A stretch of DNA of 64,000 bases, taken from assembly GCF_001625445.1 (NCBI RefSeq), contig NZ_LWHG01000029.1, forward strand, positions 62,001 through 126,000, read 5' to 3'. Both the position numbers and the translations under genes were made by a program. A model generated the notes under the pieces. That model was not told where the DNA came from, did not search any database, and saw only the letters and a program-made list of their open reading frames with translations. The stretch comes from Haladaptatus sp. R4 (GTDB lineage: Archaea > Halobacteriota > Halobacteria > Halobacteriales > Haladaptataceae). This document shows, piece after piece, positions 96-20,630 of the stretch (positions are counted from its first letter, which is position 1; every line of letters starts with the position of its first letter).

Positions 96-368
96 TCACC
101 TGCTATCGGTTCCCCCCCGAACGGCGGGAAATACCGTTAGCTCCGCATCGGCCGGACAGTGATCGTCCGAATCGACGCGCTCCCCGTTCACCGAGAAACG
201 GGCACTGGCCCGGAGTTTCCCGTCGGACGCGTACAGGTGCGTCTCTGCTCGGTGGTAGTCCTCGACGAAGGCCGCGAGCGCCTCTTCGACGGTCCCTCCG
301 TCGAAGGCGAGCGAGACGGTTTTCTCACCCGTTGCACTTCGGAGCGGGCCGTACACGGTGACGCGCAT
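96..368 (-). CDS. MoaD/SAMP-like ubiquitin-fold sulfur carrier protein
   Basis: This 90-residue protein has the beta-grasp pattern of MoaD and haloarchaeal small archaeal modifier proteins: MRVTVYGPLRSATGEKTV at the start, a central helix-rich part, and TVFPAVRGG near the end. In the family the C-terminal Gly-Gly is activated as a thiocarboxylate (molybdopterin synthesis, tRNA thiolation) or joined to proteins. Here four residues, TDSR, follow the Gly-Gly, so it would need trimming or is miscalled. A run of seven C (112-118) lies just at this spot, so the last codons are uncertain. A MoaD role would fit a genome with a molybdenum CO dehydrogenase, but the gene is not linked to that operon. 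Confidence 0.75.
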   Translation of the reverse strand: MRVTVYGPLRSATGEKTVSLAFDGGTVEEALAAFVEDYHRAETHLYASDGKLRASARFSVNGERVDSDDHCPADAELTVFPAVRGGTDSR

Positions 369-4345: not shown

Positions 4346-5487
4346 TCAATCGGTATCCATCGACGGCGTCACCCGGTCGTGGATCGTTCCCTCGCGTTCC
4401 CTGAGGTGCTTCGGGTCTCGGTCGTTACGCACGGCGACGATTTCCGAGACGATACTGAGCGCGATTTGATACGGCGACCCGCCACCGAGGTCGAGTCCCA
4501 CTGGAGTGAACAGTCGTGTTAGCTCGTCGCTGCTGAACGTTTTCCCTTCCGTCTTGAAGTCATCGAGCATCTCTTCGAACCGTTCGTGGGGGCCCATGAG
4601 GCCGATATACGGCACTTGGGTCCGAAGGAGTTCGTCGACGACGATCCGGTCGTCGACGAAGTTGTGGGTGGCGACGACGACGTACGTGTTCGCGTCGAAG
4701 TCGAGCGTGTCACGGATCCGTGCGGGGGACGTGGAATGCACGTCGGCGGCGTTCGGGAAGCGGTCGGGCGTCGCCGTCGCTCCCCTGAAGCCGACCACCG
4801 TTACGCGGAAGTCCGCCATCGCCCCGAGTTCGATGATCGGTCGAACGTCGTTGCCGGTGCGACGACCACGAGGTCGTCGGGCGAGCGGTGGCTGTCGACG
4901 AAAATCGAGACGTCATCGACGACGACGGTTTCCGAGGTACCATCGGCGAGAAGGGGAGCGACGACCTCCCGAAGGGGGTCGAAGCTGAACTCCGTGTCGT
5001 CGTCCACGTCGAAACCGTCCGCTTCGGGGTCGTAGTACGCCCGCGTTCCGACCAGTTCGTCCGGACCGTCGGTGACGGTGACGACGCCGACGTCCCAGCC
5101 GTCGCCGACGGCGTCGAGGACGGGTCGATAGCTCTCATCGAGCGGTTCGAGGAGGACGTCGATGACGCCGTTACACCCGACGCCGAGTCCCCAAACGTCG
5201 TCGTCCGCTTCGGGCATCAGGTCGTACGTCTCCAGACGCGGTTCCCCGGACGCGAGCACGTCCGCGGCGAGACGCTGAACTTCGTCTTCCAGACAGCCAG
5301 CAGTGATGTGGCCGACTTCCGTCCCGTCCGCGGAGACGAGCATCTTCGCCCCCGGGCGACGATACGCGCTCCCTTCGACGTTGACGACGGTGGCAAGGAC
5401 GCCCCGGTCGCCGCGTTCCACGAGTTCGCGGGCTCGTTGTAACACTTCGTTCTCCGGTGTACTCCAATCGTTGTCGGTTCTGCTCAT
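4346..5487 (-). CDS. coxF: XdhC/CoxF family molybdenum-enzyme maturation factor, frame broken
   Basis: The N-terminal half (from MSRTDNDWSTPENEV, start 5487) has the XdhC_CoxI pattern LATVVNVEGSAYRRPGAKM and ITAGCLEDEV. The C-terminal half has the Rossmann part (VVATHNFVDD, PYIGLMG, DLGGGSPYQIALSI). The halves lie in different frames; one extra base in the CCGG around 4854-4857 would read APGNDVRPIIELGAMADF and give 380 residues. XdhC-type proteins bind and insert sulfurated molybdenum cofactor; CoxF has this family role in CO dehydrogenase clusters. It is last in the operon, and its start overlaps the previous stop as ATGA (5484-5487). Confidence 0.85.
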
Positions 5488-6347
5488 GGTTCTGTTTGTC
5501 CTGTTTCGGATGATCGTTCGCTCGTTTCGTCCAGTTTCTCCGCGTCCAGCGAGAGCCCCGGAAGCTCGGAGCTTCGGGCGACGTACACCTTCTCCAGTCC
5601 GCTGTCGTGCAGGTCGGTCCCGCAGTCCCCCGCTCGCACACTCGCTCGAACGCCCGCCGGATTCTCCACTCGCGCCCCTGCCACGAGGTCGATACCGGCA
5701 TCGAAGGCGGGACCGGGGACGAACGATGCCGTCGCACCCACGAGAACGACGAGCGGCACGTCGGCGGATCTCAGTGCCGAGAGATAGCGATCCAATCCCC
5801 CGTACACCAGCGTCGACCCGGTGATAAAGCAGACGCCCGCACCCGCAAACGCCGTCTCGCACTCGTCCGGCGGGAACAGTTCCACGGTCACGTCGTCCGG
5901 CGACGGGACGGATTCGGGTTTCTCGCGTTCGACCACGCGCACGTCGACGGCGGCGAACTTCCGGAACGCCGGACGGAACAGGCCGACCGTGGTGATCGTG
6001 GCGACGTCGTCGTCGAGGGACGCCATCGGGTCGCCGGATCGCCACTCGACTTCGGGCGCGGAGAGGGCGTTCAGCGTCGCGATACCCACGGCTCGGCGTA
6101 CCTTCCCGTCGATGTCCCCGTCGGTCGCCAGCGATGCGAGCGCGGAAACGTTCTCGGGCCACGATTCCGGGCGCTCGCCCCGCGGCCGATGGGCGACCCC
6201 CGCAAGGTGACCGTGGTCTGGGTGCGTGAGTTCGACGAGAACGACCCGCTCGCCGACGGTAACGCGCGGGGCCGTCGCGGTCGCCGCCGTCCCCCGAACG
6301 CTGGCATAAATTCGGTCCACGAGGTCGGTATCAAGCGGGTCGGTCAT
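5484..6347 (-). CDS. DUF364 (putative heavy-metal chelation) family protein in the cox operon
   Basis: The 287-residue product starts at MTDPLDTDLVDRI (6347), chosen because ATG overlaps the coxE stop as ATGA. It resembles the DUF4213/DUF364 family: an N-terminal part with VGIATLNALSAPEVEW, and a C-terminal Rossmann-like part with TTVGLFRPAFRKF, CFITGSTLVYGGLDRYL and VVLVGATASFVPGPAFDAG. The family is proposed to handle metals or metal cofactors; its reaction is not established to my knowledge. Its position between coxE and coxF, with 4-nt overlaps on both sides, suggests a role in building or loading the Cu-Mo site, but that is inference. Confidence 0.8.
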   Translation of the reverse strand: MTDPLDTDLVDRIYASVRGTAATATAPRVTVGERVVLVELTHPDHGHLAGVAHRPRGERPESWPENVSALASLATDGDIDGKVRRAVGIATLNALSAPEVEWRSGDPMASLDDDVATITTVGLFRPAFRKFAAVDVRVVEREKPESVPSPDDVTVELFPPDECETAFAGAGVCFITGSTLVYGGLDRYLSALRSADVPLVVLVGATASFVPGPAFDAGIDLVAGARVENPAGVRASVRAGDCGTDLHDSGLEKVYVARSSELPGLSLDAEKLDETSERSSETGQTEP

Positions 6348-7659
6348 CCAGCAGTGACACCCCCTCCCGCCGCTCGCTCGCGGAAATCGTATTCGAAGCC
6401 CAACGGTCCGCGCGGTCCGTACCGGTCGAGTTGCCGCGCGACCTCCGCCACGTCCCGCGGACCGGCGAAGGCGAACAGGCCGTCGATGTATGGGAGGACG
6501 GCGGCCATTCCCCGACAGGTCGGTTCGTACGCCGGTGAGGCGGCGAGCGGGTTCAGCCACAGAATCGACCCCGAGCGAAGGGAAAGCCGTGCCATCGCCG
6601 CTTCGAGGTCGTCGACGTCACCCACGTCGAGGCCGTCGCTAACGACGAGCGTCGCCGTCCGATAGTCGATGGCGTTCGGCCACCGTGCCGGGAGCGTCGA
6701 CAGCGACGCGCCGATCTTCGTGCCGCCGCCCCACACCACCTCGGCGTGTTCGAGCGCGGTCGCCGGATCGTCGTCCGCCCGTTCGAAGACGTCGGTCACC
6801 TCCTCGATGTCCGTATCGAAGAAGAAGATCCTGACCGACCGACAGTCACGCACGAGTGACTCCAGAAACGTGAGGAGGAACCCCCGGTCGATCGCATCGA
6901 GAACCGATCGACTCACGTCCACGAGGACGCACGCGCGGACCTCGCTCACCCGCCGGTCCCGTGTCGGAAGCGACGGGGGAACGCCGCCCATCGAAAGGCT
7001 CTCTCGAAGCAGTCGTCGCGCGTCGATGGCGTACCCGGTTCGGTCCAGGTGCCACCGTCGTCCCGAGAGGGTCGCCAGGGCGCGTTCGAACCGTGTTACT
7101 GTCGTCCAAGCGCGGTCGCCGTTTCCCTCGCCTTCGACCTCTTGCCCGTCACCGCTCGCGCTGAACGTCCCCGAACGGTGATCATCGAGGAACCGTTCGA
7201 GGGGACTCTCGGTCTCATCGGCGATTCTCCGCGTTCTGATCGTCGACTCGGAAAGGGTCTCCTTCCCCACATCGCCGAGAGCATCTTCGAGCAGTTCCTT
7301 CGACTCGGAGTCAGTAGAAGCGTCGGCGGGCGGACGGTCGGACGACCGACCGGATTCGATGGGGCGACTCACGTCGTCCGCCGTGGCAATCGCTTCGAGA
7401 CCGGTGTTGAGACGGTACCAGAATACGGGGAAACGCTCGTCGAACACCTCGCTGTCGTGCGGGTCGGAGACGAGCGTTGCGTGCGTCGCGGCGCGGACAC
7501 GGCCTCGGTCGGTGACCCCCGTCGCCGCGAGCGCTTCGACCGCCGAAAGCGACCCGTCGACGGGGACGTCGACGCCGTGAAATCGGAGCGTCCGTGCGAA
7601 GCGGACGACCTGTGCGATGACGTGGTCGCGTGCGCCGACGAAGTCCGGACGACGTTCAC
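6344..7659 (-). CDS. coxE: CoxE-like VWA-domain protein, 5' end frame uncertain
   Basis: The main frame encodes a von Willebrand A-like domain with VRACVLVDVSRSVLD (MIDAS-like DxSxS), VRIFFFDTDIEEV and TATLVVSDGLDVGD, typical of CoxE. The frame stays open upstream of the first ATG (7447) and continues the family N-terminus (VVRFARTLRFHGVDV, AATHATLVSDPHDSEVFDER). The best start is GTG at 7657-7659, overlapping a TGA as GTGA, but one base must then be added near 7650. With it the protein has 438 residues. CoxE works with the AAA+ protein CoxD in converting the Mo site of CO dehydrogenase to the active Cu-S-Mo form. Confidence 0.8.
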
Positions 7660-8619
7660 CGACCGTCGTCGGGGCTCGATCCGTTTCCGTCCCGTTTCGC
7701 CGACTCGCTTCGCGGGCGGCGTCGCCAGTCGGTTCAGAGAGTCGGTATCGACGAGGGCACGCTCGGCCGCCTCCGCCCGGAGTTCGGTGAGCGTTCGCTC
7801 GACTGCCGCGGCGCTGAGATTCTCCATCTCCGCATCGCTCCGGAGCGTTGCGACCGCTCGCGCCCAGTCGAGCGTTTCGGCGACGCCCGGTCCCGTGAGG
7901 AACGACTCCTCACGGAGACGCCGGACGATACCACACACCTCGCTGGCGACGGTGGCGTCGAGGTGGGGAACGTTCCGCCGGACGATTTGGCACTCCGCTT
8001 CGAACGACGGTGGTTCGACGTGGAGGGAGAGACACCGTCGTTTGAGTGCATCACTCACCCTCCGTGTCCGATTCGACGTGATGACGACGATCGGGGGTCG
8101 TTGGGCGGTAACGGTGCCGTACTCCGGAATGCTGACCTGATAGTCGGACAGCAGTTCGAGGAGGAACGCCTCGAACTGCTCGTCCGATCTGTCGACTTCG
8201 TCGATGAGGAGGACCGGCGGCGTGACGCCCTCGTGTGTGAGTGCCTGCAACAGCGGGCGTTCGAGGAGGAACCCCGAATCGAAGACGGAGTTCGTTTCGT
8301 CGATCGATCGCTCACCCGAGCGAATCGCCAGCAACTGCTTCGTGTAGTTCCACTCGTACAGCGTGTTCTCGGCGGTCAGTCCCTCGTAACACTGGAGGCG
8401 GATGAGTTCCGCGTCGAACCCGTCGGCGAGCGCCTTCCCGAGTTCGGTCTTGCCGCTCCCCGGATCACCCTCGACGAGCAGCGGTTTGCCGAGCTTGAGC
8501 GCCAAAAAGACGGTCGTCAGCAGTTCGTCATCGGCCACGTATCCCGTCTCCGCAAACCGTTCTCCGAGGTCGATTTCGGTCAGGTCGGCGAACGGCTCAC
8601 CGTCCGCTCGTTCGTTCAT
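7656..8619 (-). CDS. coxD: CoxD-like MoxR-family AAA+ ATPase, 3' end frame uncertain
   Basis: Starting at MNERADGEPFADL (8619), the protein shows a MoxR-type AAA+ module: Walker A LLVEGDPGSGKTELGKAL, Walker B PPVLLIDEVDRSD, sensor 1 PPIVVITSNRTR and arginine-rich SDALKRRC. In bacteria CoxD is needed for the [CuSMoO2] site. The ATG overlaps the previous stop as ATGA (8616-8619). The frame would run into coxE without stopping; one base fewer at about 7690-7760 puts it in the frame ending ...DGNGSSPDDGR at TGA 7656-7658, giving about 320 residues, a normal length. An alternative is a genuine CoxD-CoxE fusion, which I consider unlikely. Confidence 0.82.
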
Positions 8620-9771
8620 CGAAGTCGCTCCTCCATGCGGAAGCGTTCGGGGTCGTCTTCGAACGCGTCGGCGCATCCCTGTCCACAGAAGTAGTAGGTC
8701 TTGCCGTCGAGGTCGACCGTCGCGGGGCCTCGTCCGTGACGACGTCCATGCCGCAGACCGGATCGATCACCGTTTCCCCGTTCTTCGCATTCGCATCCGC
8801 GCCCTCATCCTCGCCCACGTCCTCATTTTCGTCCACGCCCTCATTCTCATCCGCGTCCGCGTTCGCTTCCTCACCGTCGTTCGCCGCTTCGTCCCTTTCG
8901 GTTCGGGTTTCGATTCCCTCGCTCGGGACGGGCGGACGGTCCGTCGCACCGCGTCGGGCCGCCACGAGTTCCGCGAGGATGCTCAGTGCGATCTCCTCCG
9001 GCGTTTCGGCTCGCAGATCGAGACCGGCGGGGACGACCTGGCGTCGGCGACGTCGTCGGCGTCGACGCCGAGGCGCTCGGCCACGTCCTCGAACAGGTTC
9101 TTCGCCCGTCTCGTGCTGGCGACGAGTCCGACGTACGGAACCCCCGCTCGAAGCCCGATTTCGATCCCACTCTCGTCGAACGCCCCCATCGTCGCGACGA
9201 CGATAGCCTCTGCCCCCTCGATCCGTTCGACGACACCCTCGTCGTCGGGGGTGATAGTCTCGTCCGCCCGAGGGGCGGCCTCCGAATCGGCGACGACGGT
9301 CACCACGTACGACATGTCGCCCGCGAGTCGAGCGAGTGAGCGTGCCATCGGCGAGTCGCCGATGACCACGAGTCGCGGTGTCGGCATCACCGGTTCGACG
9401 AACAGTTCGAGGACGCCGCCGCTGTGGCACGTCATCGGGAACGCGTCGAGGCCGGGACGAGCGACGGTGTCCGGGTCGGGTGCCAATCCTAACAGCGCCG
9501 ATTTTCCCGTCCGTAGGGCGCGTTTGGCTTCGCGGACGGCGACCGACTGGGCGCAGGCGGCACCACCGACCCACCCCACCAGTTCCCCGTCGGGCGTTAC
9601 GAGCGCTCTGTCACCCACGTTCACGGAGACCGGCGGTTCTCGTCGGACGACGGTCACCACGGCGAACGAACGGCCAGCTTCGCGCCACTCGCTGGCCAGT
9701 CGGTCCACCTTCTCGGGCGAGGTAGCGTCCCGTTCGGTCGGGTCGTCGTCGGGTGGTCTGTCTGTCGTCAT
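8616..9771 (-). CDS. XdhC-like protein fused to a C-terminal YHS domain, two frame breaks
   Basis: Starts at MTTDRPPDDDPTERD (9771). The XdhC part is recognised by VTPDGELVGWVGGAACAQSV, AFPMTCHSGGVLELFVEP and the Rossmann part (LVVIGDSPMARSLARLAG, PYVGLVAS). After VAPAGLDLRAETPEEIALSI-type sequence comes an Asp/Glu/Asn/Ala-rich linker (about 9.0-8.8 kb), then a YHS metal-binding domain (DPVCGMDVVTDEAP, then YYFCGQGCADAFEDDPERF). One base is missing near 9040 and one near 8723; restoring both gives 385 residues. YHS domains bind metals, often copper in transport proteins, so this may be a copper or cofactor delivery protein. The stop overlaps the coxD start. Confidence 0.78.
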
Positions 9772-9837
9772 CTTCTGATGCGTGCTACTAGTACACACGG
9801 GTCGCGTGCGAAAGAGGATGTCGCCGCCGAGACCGGA

Positions 9838-12316
<2,479 letters not shown>

Positions 12317-12320
<4 letters not shown>

Positions 12321-13042
12321 GGGGAGTCACCTCCGTCGTCCGCGGTCCGGGTCCCGTCTGTCGTTCCGTCCTCCGAAACGTTCCGACAGCAGGAGTCCGC
12401 CCCGCATCCCGTCGCCTTGCCACCGTCCGTCACGTTGCCACCGTCGGTTGCCTCGCTGCCGTCAGTCGCTTCGCCGCCGTCCGTCGCCGTGGCCTCCGCC
12501 TCGGCGTCCGTCTGTTCGTTTTCGACGGGCGACTCCGGCGGTTCGCGGCCGTTGAGCACGTCCGCCGCGTACTCGATGGACTTGACGATGTTTTGATAGC
12601 CCGTGCATCGACAGAGGTTGCCGCTGATCTTCTCGCGAATCTCCGCCTCCGTCGGGTCCGGGTTCTCGTCCAGCAGGGCTTTTCCGGCCATGATCATGCC
12701 CGGCGTGCAGTAGCCACACTGGAGGCCGTGCATCTGGCGGAAGCCCTCCTGAATCGGGTGGAGGTCGCTCTCTCCCATTCCCGCTTCCTCTAGGCTCCCC
12801 ATTCCTTCGACCGTCGTGATGTCGCTCCCGTCGGCTTGCACGGCGAAGAGGAGACACGACTTGTAGGCTTCGCCGTCCATATTGATCGTACACGCCCCGC
12901 AGTTCCCGGTGTCACAGCCGATGTGCGTGCCGGTCAGGTCGAGGTTCTCCCGAATCGCGTGTACGAGTAGCTCTCGCGGCTCGACGCTCAGTTCGTGTTC
13001 GGTTCCGTTGATCGTGAGTGTGATGTCCTTCGTCTGGTTCAT
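12317..13042 (-). CDS. coxS: CO dehydrogenase small (2Fe-2S) subunit with unusual C-terminal tail
   Basis: The start [18 protein letters not shown] (13042) gives 241 residues. The first 160 are a normal CoxS: plant-type 2Fe-2S cysteines in [16 protein letters not shown]...CLLF and the second cluster in [11 protein letters not shown]...[10 protein letters not shown]. It passes electrons from the Mo site to the FAD subunit. The last 80 residues are unlike the family: an acidic linker, then repeated ATDGG-type units (about 12410-12490) and a Cys-rich GCGADSCC before another acidic stretch. The frame is intact. The stop overlaps the coxL ATG by four bases, and the coxM stop lies one base before the start. 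Confidence 0.92.
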
Positions 13043-13043
13043 G

Positions 13044-13909
13044 TCAGTCCCCTCCCGCCCGTTCCGTTGCGTCGGCAAGCGCACGCTGCGTGAGGACCCG
13101 GACCATGTTTTCCTTGTATTCGACGCTCCCGTGTTCGTCGGCCTCGGGATTCGACGCCTCCGCGGCGAGTTCACCCGCCCGCTTGAACAGGTCGGCACTG
13201 GGCGATTCGTTTTCGAGCGCTTCCGCGGCGTCGGGAACGGAAACGTTCGTGATATCGACCGCCGTCAGCGCGACGGTCGCGTCGGTGATGACGCCATCGT
13301 CCACTCTCACGCGAGCACCCACTCCGACCATCGCGTAGTCGCCGACCTTCCGTTTCAGTTTGTGATACGCGCTCCCCTCGTCTTCCGGCGGAACCGGTAC
13401 TCGGAGTTCGGTGGCGAGTTCCCCCTCCTTCAGGTTGTTGTCGTAGGGGAGAAGGAAGAACTCGTCCGCGGGGATGACGCGTTCGCCGTCCGGTCCCTGC
13501 GCGACCACGTCTCCCTCGTGAGCCAACAGTACGGTCGCCCAATCCCCCTTCGGGTCCGACTGGGCGACGAGCCGACGACCGTTCCGCGGTTGCGGATCTG
13601 CGGGTCCGCGACGAGCGGTGCGGTATCGGCGAAACTGCCGTACTTCTCGGCGATGAGCGGCGATTCCTCGATTTCGACGTGCCGCGTGAGGGCACCGATC
13701 TTCAGGTATCCGTCCTCCTCGCGAAGATAGTCGAGATCCTCGATGCGGTTCAGATCGACGACCGTCGACGGTCGTGCCAGTCGAAACCGCATCAGGGGAA
13801 CGAGGCTCTGTCCCCCGGCGAGGATGGTCGGTTCGTCGAGACCGTCGAGGAGGTCCACCGCCTCGTCGACGGTCGTCGGTTCGTGAAGTTCGAATTGTGC
13901 GGCTTTCAT
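13044..13909 (-). CDS. coxM: CO dehydrogenase medium (FAD) subunit, one frame break
   Basis: From [18 protein letters not shown] (13909), the FAD-binding PCMH-type domain shows [19 protein letters not shown] and [13 protein letters not shown], the two flavin-contact motifs, followed by a CO dehydrogenase flavoprotein C-terminal domain ([24 protein letters not shown] end). One base is missing near 13567; adding it gives GS[16 protein letters not shown] and 288 residues, the usual size. It moves electrons from CoxS to the quinone pool. The start overlaps the coxG stop as ATGA (13906-13909). Confidence 0.9.
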
Positions 13910-14492
13910 AGCAAGTTCCTGAGTCGGTTCGTGATACTCCGTCCCTGTTCGCTCTCGTCGACGTCCGACATCTGCTGCTGGATGTTCGTGAAAAACTGGC
14001 TCACTATCTTGTCGGCGACCGGGTTGAGTACCCGGCCGCCCAACTGTGCAATTCGCCCGGAGACGTCGGCTCCCGTCCACCACTCGACCTTCGATCCGAC
14101 GTCGTCGCTGATGGTCATTCCGGATTCCATCTCGAAACTGCTGTCCGAGGCGGCACCACCGCCGTGGCCACCATTTTGGGATACTCCCGTTCGATGATGG
14201 TGACCCGCGTTTCGAATCGCGGTTTCACGCTCCCGACGCCGATCTGCATCAACGCCGCGTACTTGCCCCCTTCCACGAACGCTCGATCCGCGACGACCTC
14301 CGGATCGACGTCGGGCAACGTCGGGACGTCCTCCTCCGGTTCGTAGTTGTCGAAATCGAAGTCGCCGTCATCCATCGGGACGATGTACCGACATCCCTTG
14401 AGCGCATCCCGAACGGCGACGGGATCCGACAATACGACCCAGGCGTCCTCCGGCTCTACCCCCTCCAGTTCGAATTCACCCTCGAACTCCAT
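13906..14492 (-). CDS. coxG: CoxG-like SRPBCC protein, one frame break, first gene of the operon
   Basis: MEFEGEFELEGVEPEDAWVV (14492) begins a CoxG/SRPBCC fold: DPVAVRDALKGC is the typical 'xxVAxClPGC'-like element, then EREYPKMVATA, and after the break SSFEMESGMTISDD, SKVEWWTGADVSGRIAQLGGRV and VADKIVSQFF. One base is missing near 14160; adding it reads GGAASDSSFEME and gives 195 residues. CoxG proteins are thought to anchor or recruit CO dehydrogenase to the membrane. It is the first gene of the nine-gene run, so the operon promoter should lie just above 14492. Confidence 0.85.
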
Positions 14493-14549
14493 GCCTGTAT
14501 GCTCCTGTCCGAGTCCGTAGACTCGTGTTCCTACCCAACCCGTGCAATG

Positions 14550-19217: not shown

Positions 19218-20630
19218 CTACAGGGATCGGTGGTGACGGACGCGGACGACTTGCGGAGTCGCATCGCCGAGTCCGAAGTCGCTGTCGTTCATCAGCACGA
19301 ATTCCCGGTCGTCGAGGATGGCGACGCCCTCGACTTTCGACGGGAGGCCGTCGTAGTCGTCGGTGTCGAACGCGAGGTCCTTCGGGACCGCTTCGACGCC
19401 CGCGTCCGCCAGACCGGCAGCATCGAGCGATTCGAGTGTCGGCGTCGTATCTACGTCGTCGAACGTCTCGGGAACCGTCGAGACGCCATCGAGATCGACG
19501 CGATAGAGCTTCATCGTCTCGCTCACGCGTTCGAGGACGAGCAGGGTCCCCTCACCGAGAACCTTGAGTTCGCTGACCTTCACGTCGTGCTGGTCGGGCG
19601 AACCGTCCGCGTTGTCCTTCTCGAACGTACCCGAAAGATCGAGTCGGTAGAGGTACTCGTCGGTGACCGATTTGGAATCGAGATCGAACCGGAAGATGCG
19701 GACGTTCCGAGACGTGTTCGACGTGTGGACGTCCGGGTTCGCGAGCGGGCTCTGCAGCGCGAAGAAAATCTCGCTCTCGTCGGGCGTGACGCCGAACCCT
19801 TCGATCCCACGGTTGAGCTTTCGTCGGCGGACGATCGCCGGGAGGTCACCCGTCACGGGATACGTGGCATCCGAGAGGTCGGCGTCCACGCCCGCCGGGA
19901 CGATACGGTCGAGTACCCTCCCGTCGGCGGCGACGTGTGCGAGGCTCGGTGCGTACTCCTCGGAGATCCAGAAGGTTCCATCGGTGAGTTGGGCGACCGC
20001 TTCGACGTCCATCCCGTTCGGATCGTACGGGATGCGTGCCCCGTTCATCGAGTACGCGGCCTCGGTGTCGGTCACGGTCAACGGGTTGCTGATAGCGGTG
20101 ATGTCGTGTCCGTCCGCGTCCGCGAGCGCGATTGTGTTCACGACGCGTGGCGTCCCATCATCGAGTTCGATCTCGTAGATCGACGGCGTATATCCGGGGT
20201 TCGTGAATATCTTCCCGCCGGACTGGTCGCCGAAGAACGAGGGATCGAGGCCGGTAACCTCCTTTGCATCATCGTGGTGGATGTTCGGTCCGCGGTCGCC
20301 GACCGCGTAGAAACGATCGGTCGATCCGTCGGCAGGAGCGGCGGCCCCACTACCGGGACTGACGAAGAGGTCGAGCGTCTTCCCACGAGTCGAGCCGTTT
20401 CGGAACGTGACGTGTCCGAGCGACAGACCGGACATGTCGAGCGACGTGACCTCGACACGGGCGTTCGTTATTCGACCACAGTTCTCGTCGTGAGTGTTGC
20501 CGTCGTTTCCTTTCTTCTTCCGCTCGTGCCGGTCTCGGCCCCAACTCCGAAGTCTGTTTCCGAAGACGCTGTACGCACCGGTCAGTCCGATTCCACCGAG
20601 CATCCGTCGCCGCGTGGTTTTTTCGCGCAT
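19218..20630 (-). CDS. Tat-exported phytase-like esterase domain protein
   Basis: A 470-residue protein starting MREKTTRRRMLGGIGLTG, a twin-arginine-type signal. The mature part matches the 'esterase-like activity of phytase' family: FYAVGDRGPNIHHDD, MDVEAVAQLTDGTFWISEEY, GRVLDRIVPAG, NRGIEGFGVTPDESEIFFAL and VEGVAILDDREFVLMNDSDFG, a beta-propeller pattern. Such proteins are extracellular and may act on phosphate esters, but few have been tested. The upstream gap to 20738 is very AT-rich (TATATATTTTTATA near 20662) and probably holds promoters for both directions. Confidence 0.85.
   Translation of the reverse strand: MREKTTRRRMLGGIGLTGAYSVFGNRLRSWGRDRHERKKKGNDGNTHDENCGRITNARVEVTSLDMSGLSLGHVTFRNGSTRGKTLDLFVSPGSGAAAPADGSTDRFYAVGDRGPNIHHDDAKEVTGLDPSFFGDQSGGKIFTNPGYTPSIYEIELDDGTPRVVNTIALADADGHDITAISNPLTVTDTEAAYSMNGARIPYDPNGMDVEAVAQLTDGTFWISEEYAPSLAHVAADGRVLDRIVPAGVDADLSDATYPVTGDLPAIVRRRKLNRGIEGFGVTPDESEIFFALQSPLANPDVHTSNTSRNVRIFRFDLDSKSVTDEYLYRLDLSGTFEKDNADGSPDQHDVKVSELKVLGEGTLLVLERVSETMKLYRVDLDGVSTVPETFDDVDTTPTLESLDAAGLADAGVEAVPKDLAFDTDDYDGLPSKVEGVAILDDREFVLMNDSDFGLGDATPQVVRVRHHRSL

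What the first reader, a model, noticed from the sequence alone, without database searches (positions are those of the whole stretch)
4346..14492. Complete form I aerobic CO dehydrogenase operon in a haloarchaeon
Nine minus-strand genes run coxG-M-S-L-(XdhC-YHS)-D-E-DUF364-F with 4-nt stop/start overlaps at most junctions. CoxL carries AYRCSFR, the Cu-binding loop of true CO oxidisers, and the maturation genes coxD, coxE and coxF are all present. Form I CoxL is known from some haloarchaea, so CO as an energy source is plausible; the gene order and the two extra genes differ from the classical bacterial coxMSLDEFG order.
Basis: partly seen in the sequence, partly recalled or inferred. Interest (0 to 1): 0.75.

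Follow-up and report, generated by a model that had tools for sequence, protein, structure and literature searches.

The report
Haloarchaeal carbon monoxide oxidation gene cluster
A salt-loving archaeon carries the known gene set for using carbon monoxide; the cluster itself is ordinary for such archaea, but one of its helper genes ends in a likely copper-binding piece that hints at how the enzyme's unusual copper atom gets in.

Summary
The cluster is real: nine minus-strand genes at 4346-14492, CoxL in the form I clade, AYRCSFR present. It is the usual haloarchaeal arrangement: 12 of 17 fetched haloarchaeal loci share the full order. Corrections: (1) As sequenced it is not intact: six genes carry eight frame changes, without nonsense codons. 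Other conserved genes of this genome are frameshifted too (21 of 160 orthologous places), so assembly error is likely; but cox is about six times denser, so decay is not excluded. (2) The 'extra' XdhC-YHS gene is the CoxF orthologue; the last gene is a CoxI-type XdhC also found in form II loci. (3) The YHS tail is widespread: 51 of 51 CoxF rows outside the proteobacterial branch of my tree have it, nearly always with the Asp-Cys-Cys-Cys set of a copper-responsive YHS domain. In 195 haloarchaeal genomes this CoxF occurs in exactly the 14 with form I CoxL (13 with YHS, one without). CoxF of Oligotropha, where copper loading was studied, lacks the tail. Best mechanism: CoxD sulfurates Mo; CoxF, with its YHS tail, delivers copper with CoxE. 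DUF364 is an add-on (12 of 14). CO uptake and copper binding are untested.

The parts
13906..14492 (-). coxG (one frame change near 14160)
   Evidence: tblastn to L007/L008 in two frames; Pfam COXG on the L008 orthologue, no match on the window piece; alignment
13044..13909 (-). coxM, FAD subunit (frame change near 13570)
   Evidence: Pfam CO_deh_flav_C on the second window piece, none on the first
12317..13042 (-). coxS, 2Fe-2S subunit, open throughout
9838..12320 (-). coxL, Mo-Cu subunit, form I (frame changes near 11816 and 10190)
   Evidence: PDB match to CO dehydrogenase large chains; tree
11129..11149 (-). AYRCSFR active-site loop
   Evidence: sequence; alignment of 94 CoxL-type rows
8616..9771 (-). 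coxF (XdhC-YHS fusion; frame changes near 9030 and 8725)
   Evidence: Pfam XdhC_CoxI and XdhC_C on the window piece, plus YHS on the L008 orthologue; tree with pHCG3 CoxF
8637..8768 (-). YHS domain of CoxF, carrying D-x2-C and C-x3-C
   Evidence: window translations and 52-row YHS alignment; YHS profile hits the two window pieces in separate frames
7690..8619 (-). coxD, MoxR-type AAA+ ATPase (frame change near 7726, 3' end uncertain)
   Evidence: Walker motifs visible in the alignment
6344..7700 (-). coxE, VWA protein (start unresolved)
5484..6347 (-). DUF364/DUF4213 protein, open throughout
   Evidence: Pfam PF04016; AlphaFold2 model pLDDT 86 matching 3npg and 3l5o
   Evidence: tree
14510..14525 (-). 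inverted repeat upstream of coxG, possible operator or leader hairpin
   Evidence: not tested further

Best explanation
This is a standard haloarchaeal form I (Mo-Cu) aerobic CO dehydrogenase operon: coxG-M-S-L-F(YHS)-D-E-DUF364-I. CoxM, CoxS and CoxL make the enzyme that turns CO and water into CO2 plus electrons for respiration. CoxD sulfurates the molybdenum; then CoxF, working with CoxE, supplies copper, and I infer that its C-terminal YHS domain is the part that holds the copper and hands it on. CoxG helps the enzyme to reach the membrane. DUF364 is an accessory found in most haloarchaeal form I operons, perhaps making or handling a metal ligand or pterin. Shown here: gene identities, form I clade, CoxF orthology, conserved metal-ligand residues, co-occurrence. 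Taken from work on Oligotropha: the steps of CoxD, CoxE, CoxF and CoxG. Inferred: the copper role of YHS and any role of DUF364. The frame changes are most likely assembly errors, so the strain probably has working genes.
For: CoxL in the form I clade, support 100; best PDB matches are CO dehydrogenase large chains (1ffu, 8uem, 1zxi, 1n5w). Full nine-gene order in 12 of 17 haloarchaeal loci L006-L019, L026, L058, L063, and annotated in N. bangense. In 195 genomes of the order, form I CoxL and the CoxF orthologue at E <= 1e-49 occur in the same 14 (Fisher p 1e-21); 13 of these 14 CoxF have YHS, counting the window's split one. Five haloarchaeal form II loci that I looked at have G-S-L-M-D-E-CoxI without CoxF-YHS or DUF364. 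XdhC tree: YHS-CoxF groups with pHCG3 CoxF; the last gene groups apart, with form II genes. YHS Asp and three Cys kept in 51, 51, 51 and 52 of 52 rows. Copper is supplied by CoxF in Oligotropha (PMC4240915: abstract, passages, section 14), and a YHS domain with the same ligand set makes an adenylyl cyclase copper-responsive (PMC4626032: abstract, passages). Frameshifts elsewhere in this genome: 21 of 160 orthologous places, against 3 of 76 between congeners (1 of 39 and 2 of 37); they hit PEP synthase, methionine synthase, and Trm5b-like and NuoH-like genes.
Against: Frame changes are about six times denser in cox than elsewhere in this genome (8 in 10.1 kb against 1.3 expected, P 6e-5, a region chosen after the fact), and gene GC does not explain it. 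On the same contig outside cox I saw none in 10 orthologous places (10.9 kb). One cox change is an 8-column gap, unlike the one- or two-base indels seen elsewhere. Window CoxD has 13 private changes at columns otherwise invariant, where the 13 other rows have 0-3 each; CoxG's first part 3 against 0-1. YHS is not indispensable: proteobacterial CoxF lacks it and so does the haloarchaeon G061, whose CoxL also has an in-frame TGA; the Deinococcus YHS has lost three of the four ligands. In L029 the XdhC-YHS gene lies beside a form II CoxL, with form I CoxL divergent nearby. L006, L009 and L011 lack parts of the order. No copper binding or CO uptake was measured.
Confidence: 0.68

Rival explanations
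1. The operon is a decaying relic: the eight frame changes are real mutations and the strain cannot oxidise CO.
For: Density of frame changes in cox is about six times that of other tested genes, and none was seen in 10 places elsewhere on the contig. Only 1 of 9 held genomes of the genus has form I CoxL, so it is dispensable there. CoxD and CoxE of the window have 13 and 12 private changes, although another row (L026) has 14 in CoxE.
Against: One frame without stops in every segment between the jumps. Among 64 form I rows the window CoxL is never the lone deviant at an otherwise invariant column, and its tip branch equals that of L007, whose coxL frame is open (0.10 and 0.099). Third positions carry 69-70% of the codon differences. 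Central genes elsewhere are frameshifted by small indels too.
Confidence: 0.28
2. The YHS domain of CoxF is a structural zinc or iron site, or a sensor, and not the copper donor.
For: YHS and TRASH-like domains occur in other proteins; the profile also matches L24e and phenol hydroxylase. Proteobacterial CoxF and the CoxF of G061 dispense with it.
Against: It is fused to the very protein proposed to supply copper (PMC4240915), and in the sampled haloarchaea this CoxF occurs only with the copper-bearing form I. It has the same Asp and three Cys as a YHS domain that responds to copper and not to Zn, Fe, Cr, Co or Ni (PMC4626032, passages). It is a confident fold on a flexible linker of about 32 residues, as a carrier domain would be.
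Confidence: 0.37
3. DUF364 is a passenger gene without a role in CO dehydrogenase.
For: No match in 2 of 14 form I genomes (G129, G171; G171 is a 360-contig assembly), and close relatives stand in G128 and G155 with no cox genes within the 20-kb stretches looked at.
Against: Present in 12 of 14 form I genomes and 2 of 181 others at E <= 1e-50 (Fisher p 2e-15); coupled by 4-nt overlaps; 65 invariant positions in 13 orthologues, including His53, Cys242 and His247.
Confidence: 0.35

Closest known systems
Form I cox operons of haloarchaea (Halovenus carboxidivorans L008, Salinigranum salinum L007, Natronorubrum bangense L243)
   Same: Same nine genes in the same order; CoxL 85-87% identical to L007/L008 and 77.5% to N. 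bangense
   Different: The window copy carries eight frame changes and lies beside a GDSL hydrolase gene, where N. bangense has moeA
coxMSLDEFG of Afipia (Oligotropha) carboxidovorans pHCG3 (L242)
   Same: M-S-L core, CoxD, CoxE, CoxF and CoxG homologues
   Different: Here G comes first, CoxF lies between L and D and carries YHS, and DUF364 and a CoxI-type gene are inside the run; pHCG3 CoxF has no YHS match
Haloarchaeal form II-type loci (L155, L156, L157, L108, L094)
   Same: CoxG, S, L, M, D, E and CoxI-type homologues
   Different: CoxL has GAGR in place of CSFR; order G-S-L-M-D-E-I; no CoxF-YHS, no DUF364 found
YHS domain of Mycobacterium phlei adenylyl cyclase (PMC4626032)
   Same: One Asp and three Cys at the same spacing (against residue numbers in the paper)
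   Different: There a sensor on a cyclase; here fused to an XdhC-type maturation protein
DUF364 structures 3npg and 3l5o (PMC2954201)
   Same: Same fold, TM-score 0.66-0.71 over the query
   Different: 17-19% identity; five aligned cox proteins share a C-G-T-x-L-H stretch

Membership tests
Form I aerobic CO dehydrogenase | CoxL loop AYxCSFR with the Cu-ligand Cys | tested here: met
   AYRCSFR at 11149-11129; CSFR in 66 of 94 CoxL-type rows, all in one clade
Form I aerobic CO dehydrogenase | CoxL groups with form I to the exclusion of form II | tested here: met
   support 100, motif columns dropped; quick tree, SH-aLRT only
Form I aerobic CO dehydrogenase | M, S and L subunits encoded together | tested here: met
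Form I aerobic CO dehydrogenase | maturation genes coxD, coxE and coxF | tested here: met
   present, coxD and coxF with frame changes; coxF is the XdhC-YHS gene
Form I aerobic CO dehydrogenase | open reading frames for all subunits in this assembly | tested here: not met
   frame changes in G, M, L, F, D and I; probably assembly errors
Form I aerobic CO dehydrogenase | oxidises CO; contains the [CuSMoO2] site | not testable with these tools
   needs strain and enzyme
CoxF | groups with Oligotropha CoxF, apart from CoxI | tested here: met
   window XdhC-YHS lies in the 66-row CoxF group (95) with L242_14001, which is 280 aa like CoxF in PMC4240915; the name CoxI for L242_17505 is recalled and its branch is long
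Copper-binding YHS domain | Asp and three Cys metal ligands | tested here: met
   51, 51, 51 and 52 of 52 rows; window has all four, across its frame change
Copper-binding YHS domain | binds copper | not testable with these tools
   I measured none and saw no binding data for a CoxF-YHS protein (paper searches)
DUF364 (PF04016) | profile match and enolase-N plus Rossmann-like fold | tested here: met
   71.5 bits, cut-off 23

The most novel reading that the evidence does not exclude
The YHS tail is the original copper-carrying half of CoxF, present in most form I CO dehydrogenase systems of archaea and bacteria and lost in Proteobacteria, the group that contains the model Oligotropha. It holds Cu(I) on one Asp and three Cys and swings on a flexible linker to load the Mo-S-Cu site, while the XdhC body guards the sulfurated molybdenum. 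Haloarchaea add DUF364 to provide or trap the metal in high salt.
Probability: 0.42. Interest if true: 0.7.

Novelty: new member of a known kind. Interest (0 to 1): 0.45.

Why it matters
Form I CO dehydrogenase has a Mo-S-Cu site that PMC4240915 calls unprecedented in nature, and that paper proposes its copper donor from mutants of one proteobacterium, whose CoxF has no YHS match here. The wide CoxF-YHS fusion, seen because this operon was followed up, gives a residue-level hypothesis that can be tested by changing one domain. For the strain, a patchy gain (1 of 9 held genomes in the genus) suggests horizontal spread of CO use among haloarchaea.

Tried and rejected
'Two genes peculiar to this operon' was rejected: both are common in haloarchaeal form I loci, and the XdhC-YHS fusion is found across phyla.

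I lowered three odds slightly for this and for the clean remainder of the contig.

'Frame changes are purely an effect of high GC' was rejected: GC of frameshifted and intact genes does not differ (medians 0.642 and 0.631, p 0.27). Homopolymer counts are like those of congeners.

A coding-potential scan saw seven of the eight cox jumps as frame switches but scored only five as frameshift-like, and had a background of 0.16-0.46 per 10 kb in controls against 0.84 in this genome. It was replaced by the homology test. (15 of 112 orthologues in this genome; reverse direction 7 of 102) was not used for the counts because I judged that some reverse-direction queries were antisense frames. One search used too strict a coding threshold (24-197 queries, 3-36 orthologues) and was not used. 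One search gave 22 frame changes in 166 orthologues; removing places found from both congeners left 21 of 160. Of 14 chromosomal cases sent to (one of them a control), six showed a clear one- or two-base indel, two were skipped and the rest were unclear. I did not look for second intact copies of the broken chromosomal genes.

Neighbours of the lone DUF364 genes (L151-L153) gave no metal or molybdenum context that I could recognise (by eye, no family search).

A replicate of the co-occurrence test in actinobacteria failed because the tool needs a G handle. It was not pursued, so co-occurrence is tested in one archaeal order only.
Full report
What is there. The window is bases 62001-126000 of contig C29 (426 kb) in a genome of 4.9 Mb in 34 contigs. 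It is haloarchaeal: its order holds G184, whose CoxL is identical to that of Halovenus carboxidivorans L008. Frames of relatives align to the minus strand of 4346-14492 in the order CoxG, CoxM, CoxS, CoxL, XdhC-YHS, CoxD, CoxE, DUF364, XdhC. Pfam names each on the Halovenus orthologues, and on the window pieces where these are long enough (the first pieces of G and M gave no match). The order is far beyond chance: 12 of the 17 haloarchaeal loci fetched by CoxL share all nine genes in the same order (L007, L008, L012, L014-L019, L026, L058, L063; L017 and L058 are identical). Two are cut by contig ends (L010, L013) and three depart: L006 lacks DUF364 and the last gene, L009 shows M-S-L-XdhC-YHS only, and L011 lacks D, E and the last gene. 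The N. bangense record is publicly annotated with the same run.

Frame changes. Compared with relatives the reading frame jumps eight times: G near 14160, M near 13570, L near 11816 and 10190, XdhC-YHS near 9030 and 8725, D near 7726, last gene near 4860. Between the jumps one frame is always open. To see whether this is special I took 30 stretches (600 kb) of the same genome and compared genes of two congeners with them and with the window: 21 of 160 orthologous places carry a frame change (1.26 per 10 kb), against 1 of 39 and 2 of 37 between the congeners (Fisher p 0.04 for 22 of 166 against 3 of 76; the two controls are the same pair in both directions). The broken genes include PEP synthase and methionine synthase, and Trm5b-like and NuoH-like genes whose scores lie below the NCBIfam cut-offs. 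Six of the chromosomal cases show a clear indel of one or two bases. A genome with so many broken central genes is most simply one with unpolished indels; its completeness is 95.85 against 99-100 in eight congeners.

Against that reading: eight changes in 10.1 kb is about six times the rate elsewhere (P 6e-5, post hoc); GC does not explain it; on the same contig outside cox I saw no change in 10 orthologous places, 10.9 kb, where 1.4 would be expected (the count of places favours unbroken matches); one cox change is an 8-column gap; and CoxD shows 13 private changes where the 13 other rows show 0-3, CoxE 12 where others show 0-14, the first part of CoxG 3 where others show 0-1, although the Walker motifs of CoxD stand. 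CoxL and CoxS show no such excess: among 64 form I rows the window CoxL is never the lone deviant at an otherwise invariant column; among 18 haloarchaeal rows it deviates alone at 8 columns, L007 at 7; CoxS 1 where others show 0-5. The CoxL tip branch is 0.10 like the 0.099 of L007, and 69-70% of codon differences are at third positions. I hold assembly error, with a working operon in the strain, at about 0.7.

Form I. In a tree of 94 CoxL-type rows, with the seven motif columns left out, the 66 rows ending in CSFR form one side of a branch with support 100; the window falls with L006, L007 and L008 (97) inside 18 haloarchaeal rows (99) (quick search, SH-aLRT only, midpoint root). The best solved relatives are CO dehydrogenase large chains. 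In 195 genomes of the order 14 have form I CoxL (77-100% identical to the L008 query; the window's open stretch 85%); the other matches at E <= 1e-200 are form II-type at 45-48%. In the genus, 1 of 9 held genomes has it. CO oxidation with a form I enzyme has been reported for Halobaculum WSA2 (PMC5743682, passages), whose locus here is L013.

What the two 'extra' genes are. A tree of 109 XdhC-family rows (LG+G4, SH-aLRT only) puts the XdhC-YHS gene with CoxF of Oligotropha plasmid pHCG3 (L242_14001, 280 aa, as CoxF in PMC4240915), in a 66-row group with support 95. The last gene of the operon lies elsewhere (29 rows, 98) with the second pHCG3 XdhC protein, which I recall as CoxI and whose branch is long, and with the XdhC genes of haloarchaeal form II loci. 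So the operon reads coxG-M-S-L-F-D-E-DUF364-I. Within the 66-row group, YHS is present in 51 of 51 rows outside the proteobacterial branch (the window row, split by a frame change, was not counted; the rows include duplicates such as L017/L058, L008/L158 and the near-copies L014/L104). In the proteobacterial branch it is absent except in one of two genes of L056. A further group of 14 XdhC rows, all from Thermoplasmata form I loci and without YHS, lies outside the 66 (support 100); I treat it as a separate XdhC gene. In 12 of the 13 loci that hold these rows I could not exclude or did show a second, YHS-bearing gene only where the contig reached it (L044 and L049 show none).

Why copper. Form I differs from form II by the copper bound to the Cys of CSFR (PMC4240915). 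In the 195 genomes the CoxF orthologue (E <= 1e-49; next best 1e-24) occurs in the same 14 genomes as form I CoxL and in none of 181 others. Checking each of the 14, YHS is found in 13 (the window's in two frames); G061's CoxF ends in an acidic tail without YHS, and its CoxL has an in-frame TGA. The listed weaker matches in the other genomes cover either the XdhC part or the YHS part of the query, not both (matches at E <= 1e-10). Five haloarchaeal form II loci that I looked at have G-S-L-M-D-E-I and neither CoxF-YHS nor DUF364. A partial exception outside the order is L029, where XdhC-YHS stands beside a form II CoxL, with form I CoxL on the other strand about 8 kb away. In Oligotropha, mutants place CoxD at sulfuration and CoxF/CoxE at copper insertion, and the authors name a putative copper motif in CoxF (PMC4240915: abstract, passages, section 14). 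A YHS domain makes a mycobacterial adenylyl cyclase respond to copper and not to Zn, Fe, Cr, Co or Ni, with an Asp and three Cys as presumed ligands (PMC4626032: abstract, passages). The same four residues at the same spacing are kept in 51, 51, 51 and 52 of 52 CoxF-YHS rows; the exception is Deinococcus, which has lost three of them. They are invariant in the 43 rows used for the fold, a set that left out Deinococcus. The model shows an XdhC body, a disordered linker of about 32 residues, and a confident YHS domain; the body matches XdhC structures. Two searches of the open paper library, for YHS with CoxF and for YHS with XdhC and CO dehydrogenase, found nothing; most subscription papers are not covered.

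DUF364. It occurs in 12 of the 14 form I genomes, in 2 of 181 others at similar strength (G128, G155), and in 3 more weakly (p 2e-15 at E <= 1e-50). [quoted passage not shown] G129, with form I and a 99% complete genome, has no match, so it helps rather than being essential. My guess at its job is weak.

Verdict. The operon is real, correctly recognised as form I, and ordinary for haloarchaea. It is not intact as sequenced, probably for technical reasons. The useful result lies beside it: CoxF carries a likely copper domain in most form I systems seen here, but not in the model organism.

Noticed in passing
window 14510-14525: Inverted repeat (6-bp arms, 4-nt loop) just upstream of coxG; L006 and L007 have similar dyads there, with a paired change in L006 (by eye).
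   Followed up: partly
L010-L019, L063 upstream of coxG: Most of this second haloarchaeal subclade shares a conserved block with a TATAAAA promoter-like sequence, not seen in the window's subclade.
   Followed up: no
L094 (G000:C21:995001-1015000): Two form II-type CoxL genes of the same genome are also split by a frame change, although 95% and 84% identical to unbroken copies in congener G003.
   Followed up: partly
L017 and L058: Natronorubrum bangense records carry an identical 21.5-kb stretch with the cox operon on chromosome and plasmid: recent duplication or assembly artefact.
   Followed up: partly
L117 (G061): A haloarchaeal form I locus whose CoxF lacks YHS and whose CoxL has an in-frame TGA: perhaps a decaying or altered system.
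   Followed up: partly
G000 contig C21 stretches: GATC is 1.9 times as frequent as in two congeners; the cause is unknown.
   Followed up: no
window 19221-20630: Phytase-like gene (PF13449) near the operon; a phytase step was proposed for copper release in Oligotropha, but nothing links the two here.
   Followed up: no
window 99-368: ThiS-family small protein, possibly MoaD/SAMP-like, 4 kb from the operon end.
   Followed up: no
L029 1-5000: XdhC-YHS and coxD lie beside form II-type M-S-L, while form I M-S-L is divergent about 8 kb away: maturation genes may be shared.
   Followed up: no
L151, L152 (G128, G155): Close relatives of the cox DUF364 protein (51-54% identical) stand apart from cox genes in genomes without form I CO dehydrogenase.
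   Followed up: partly
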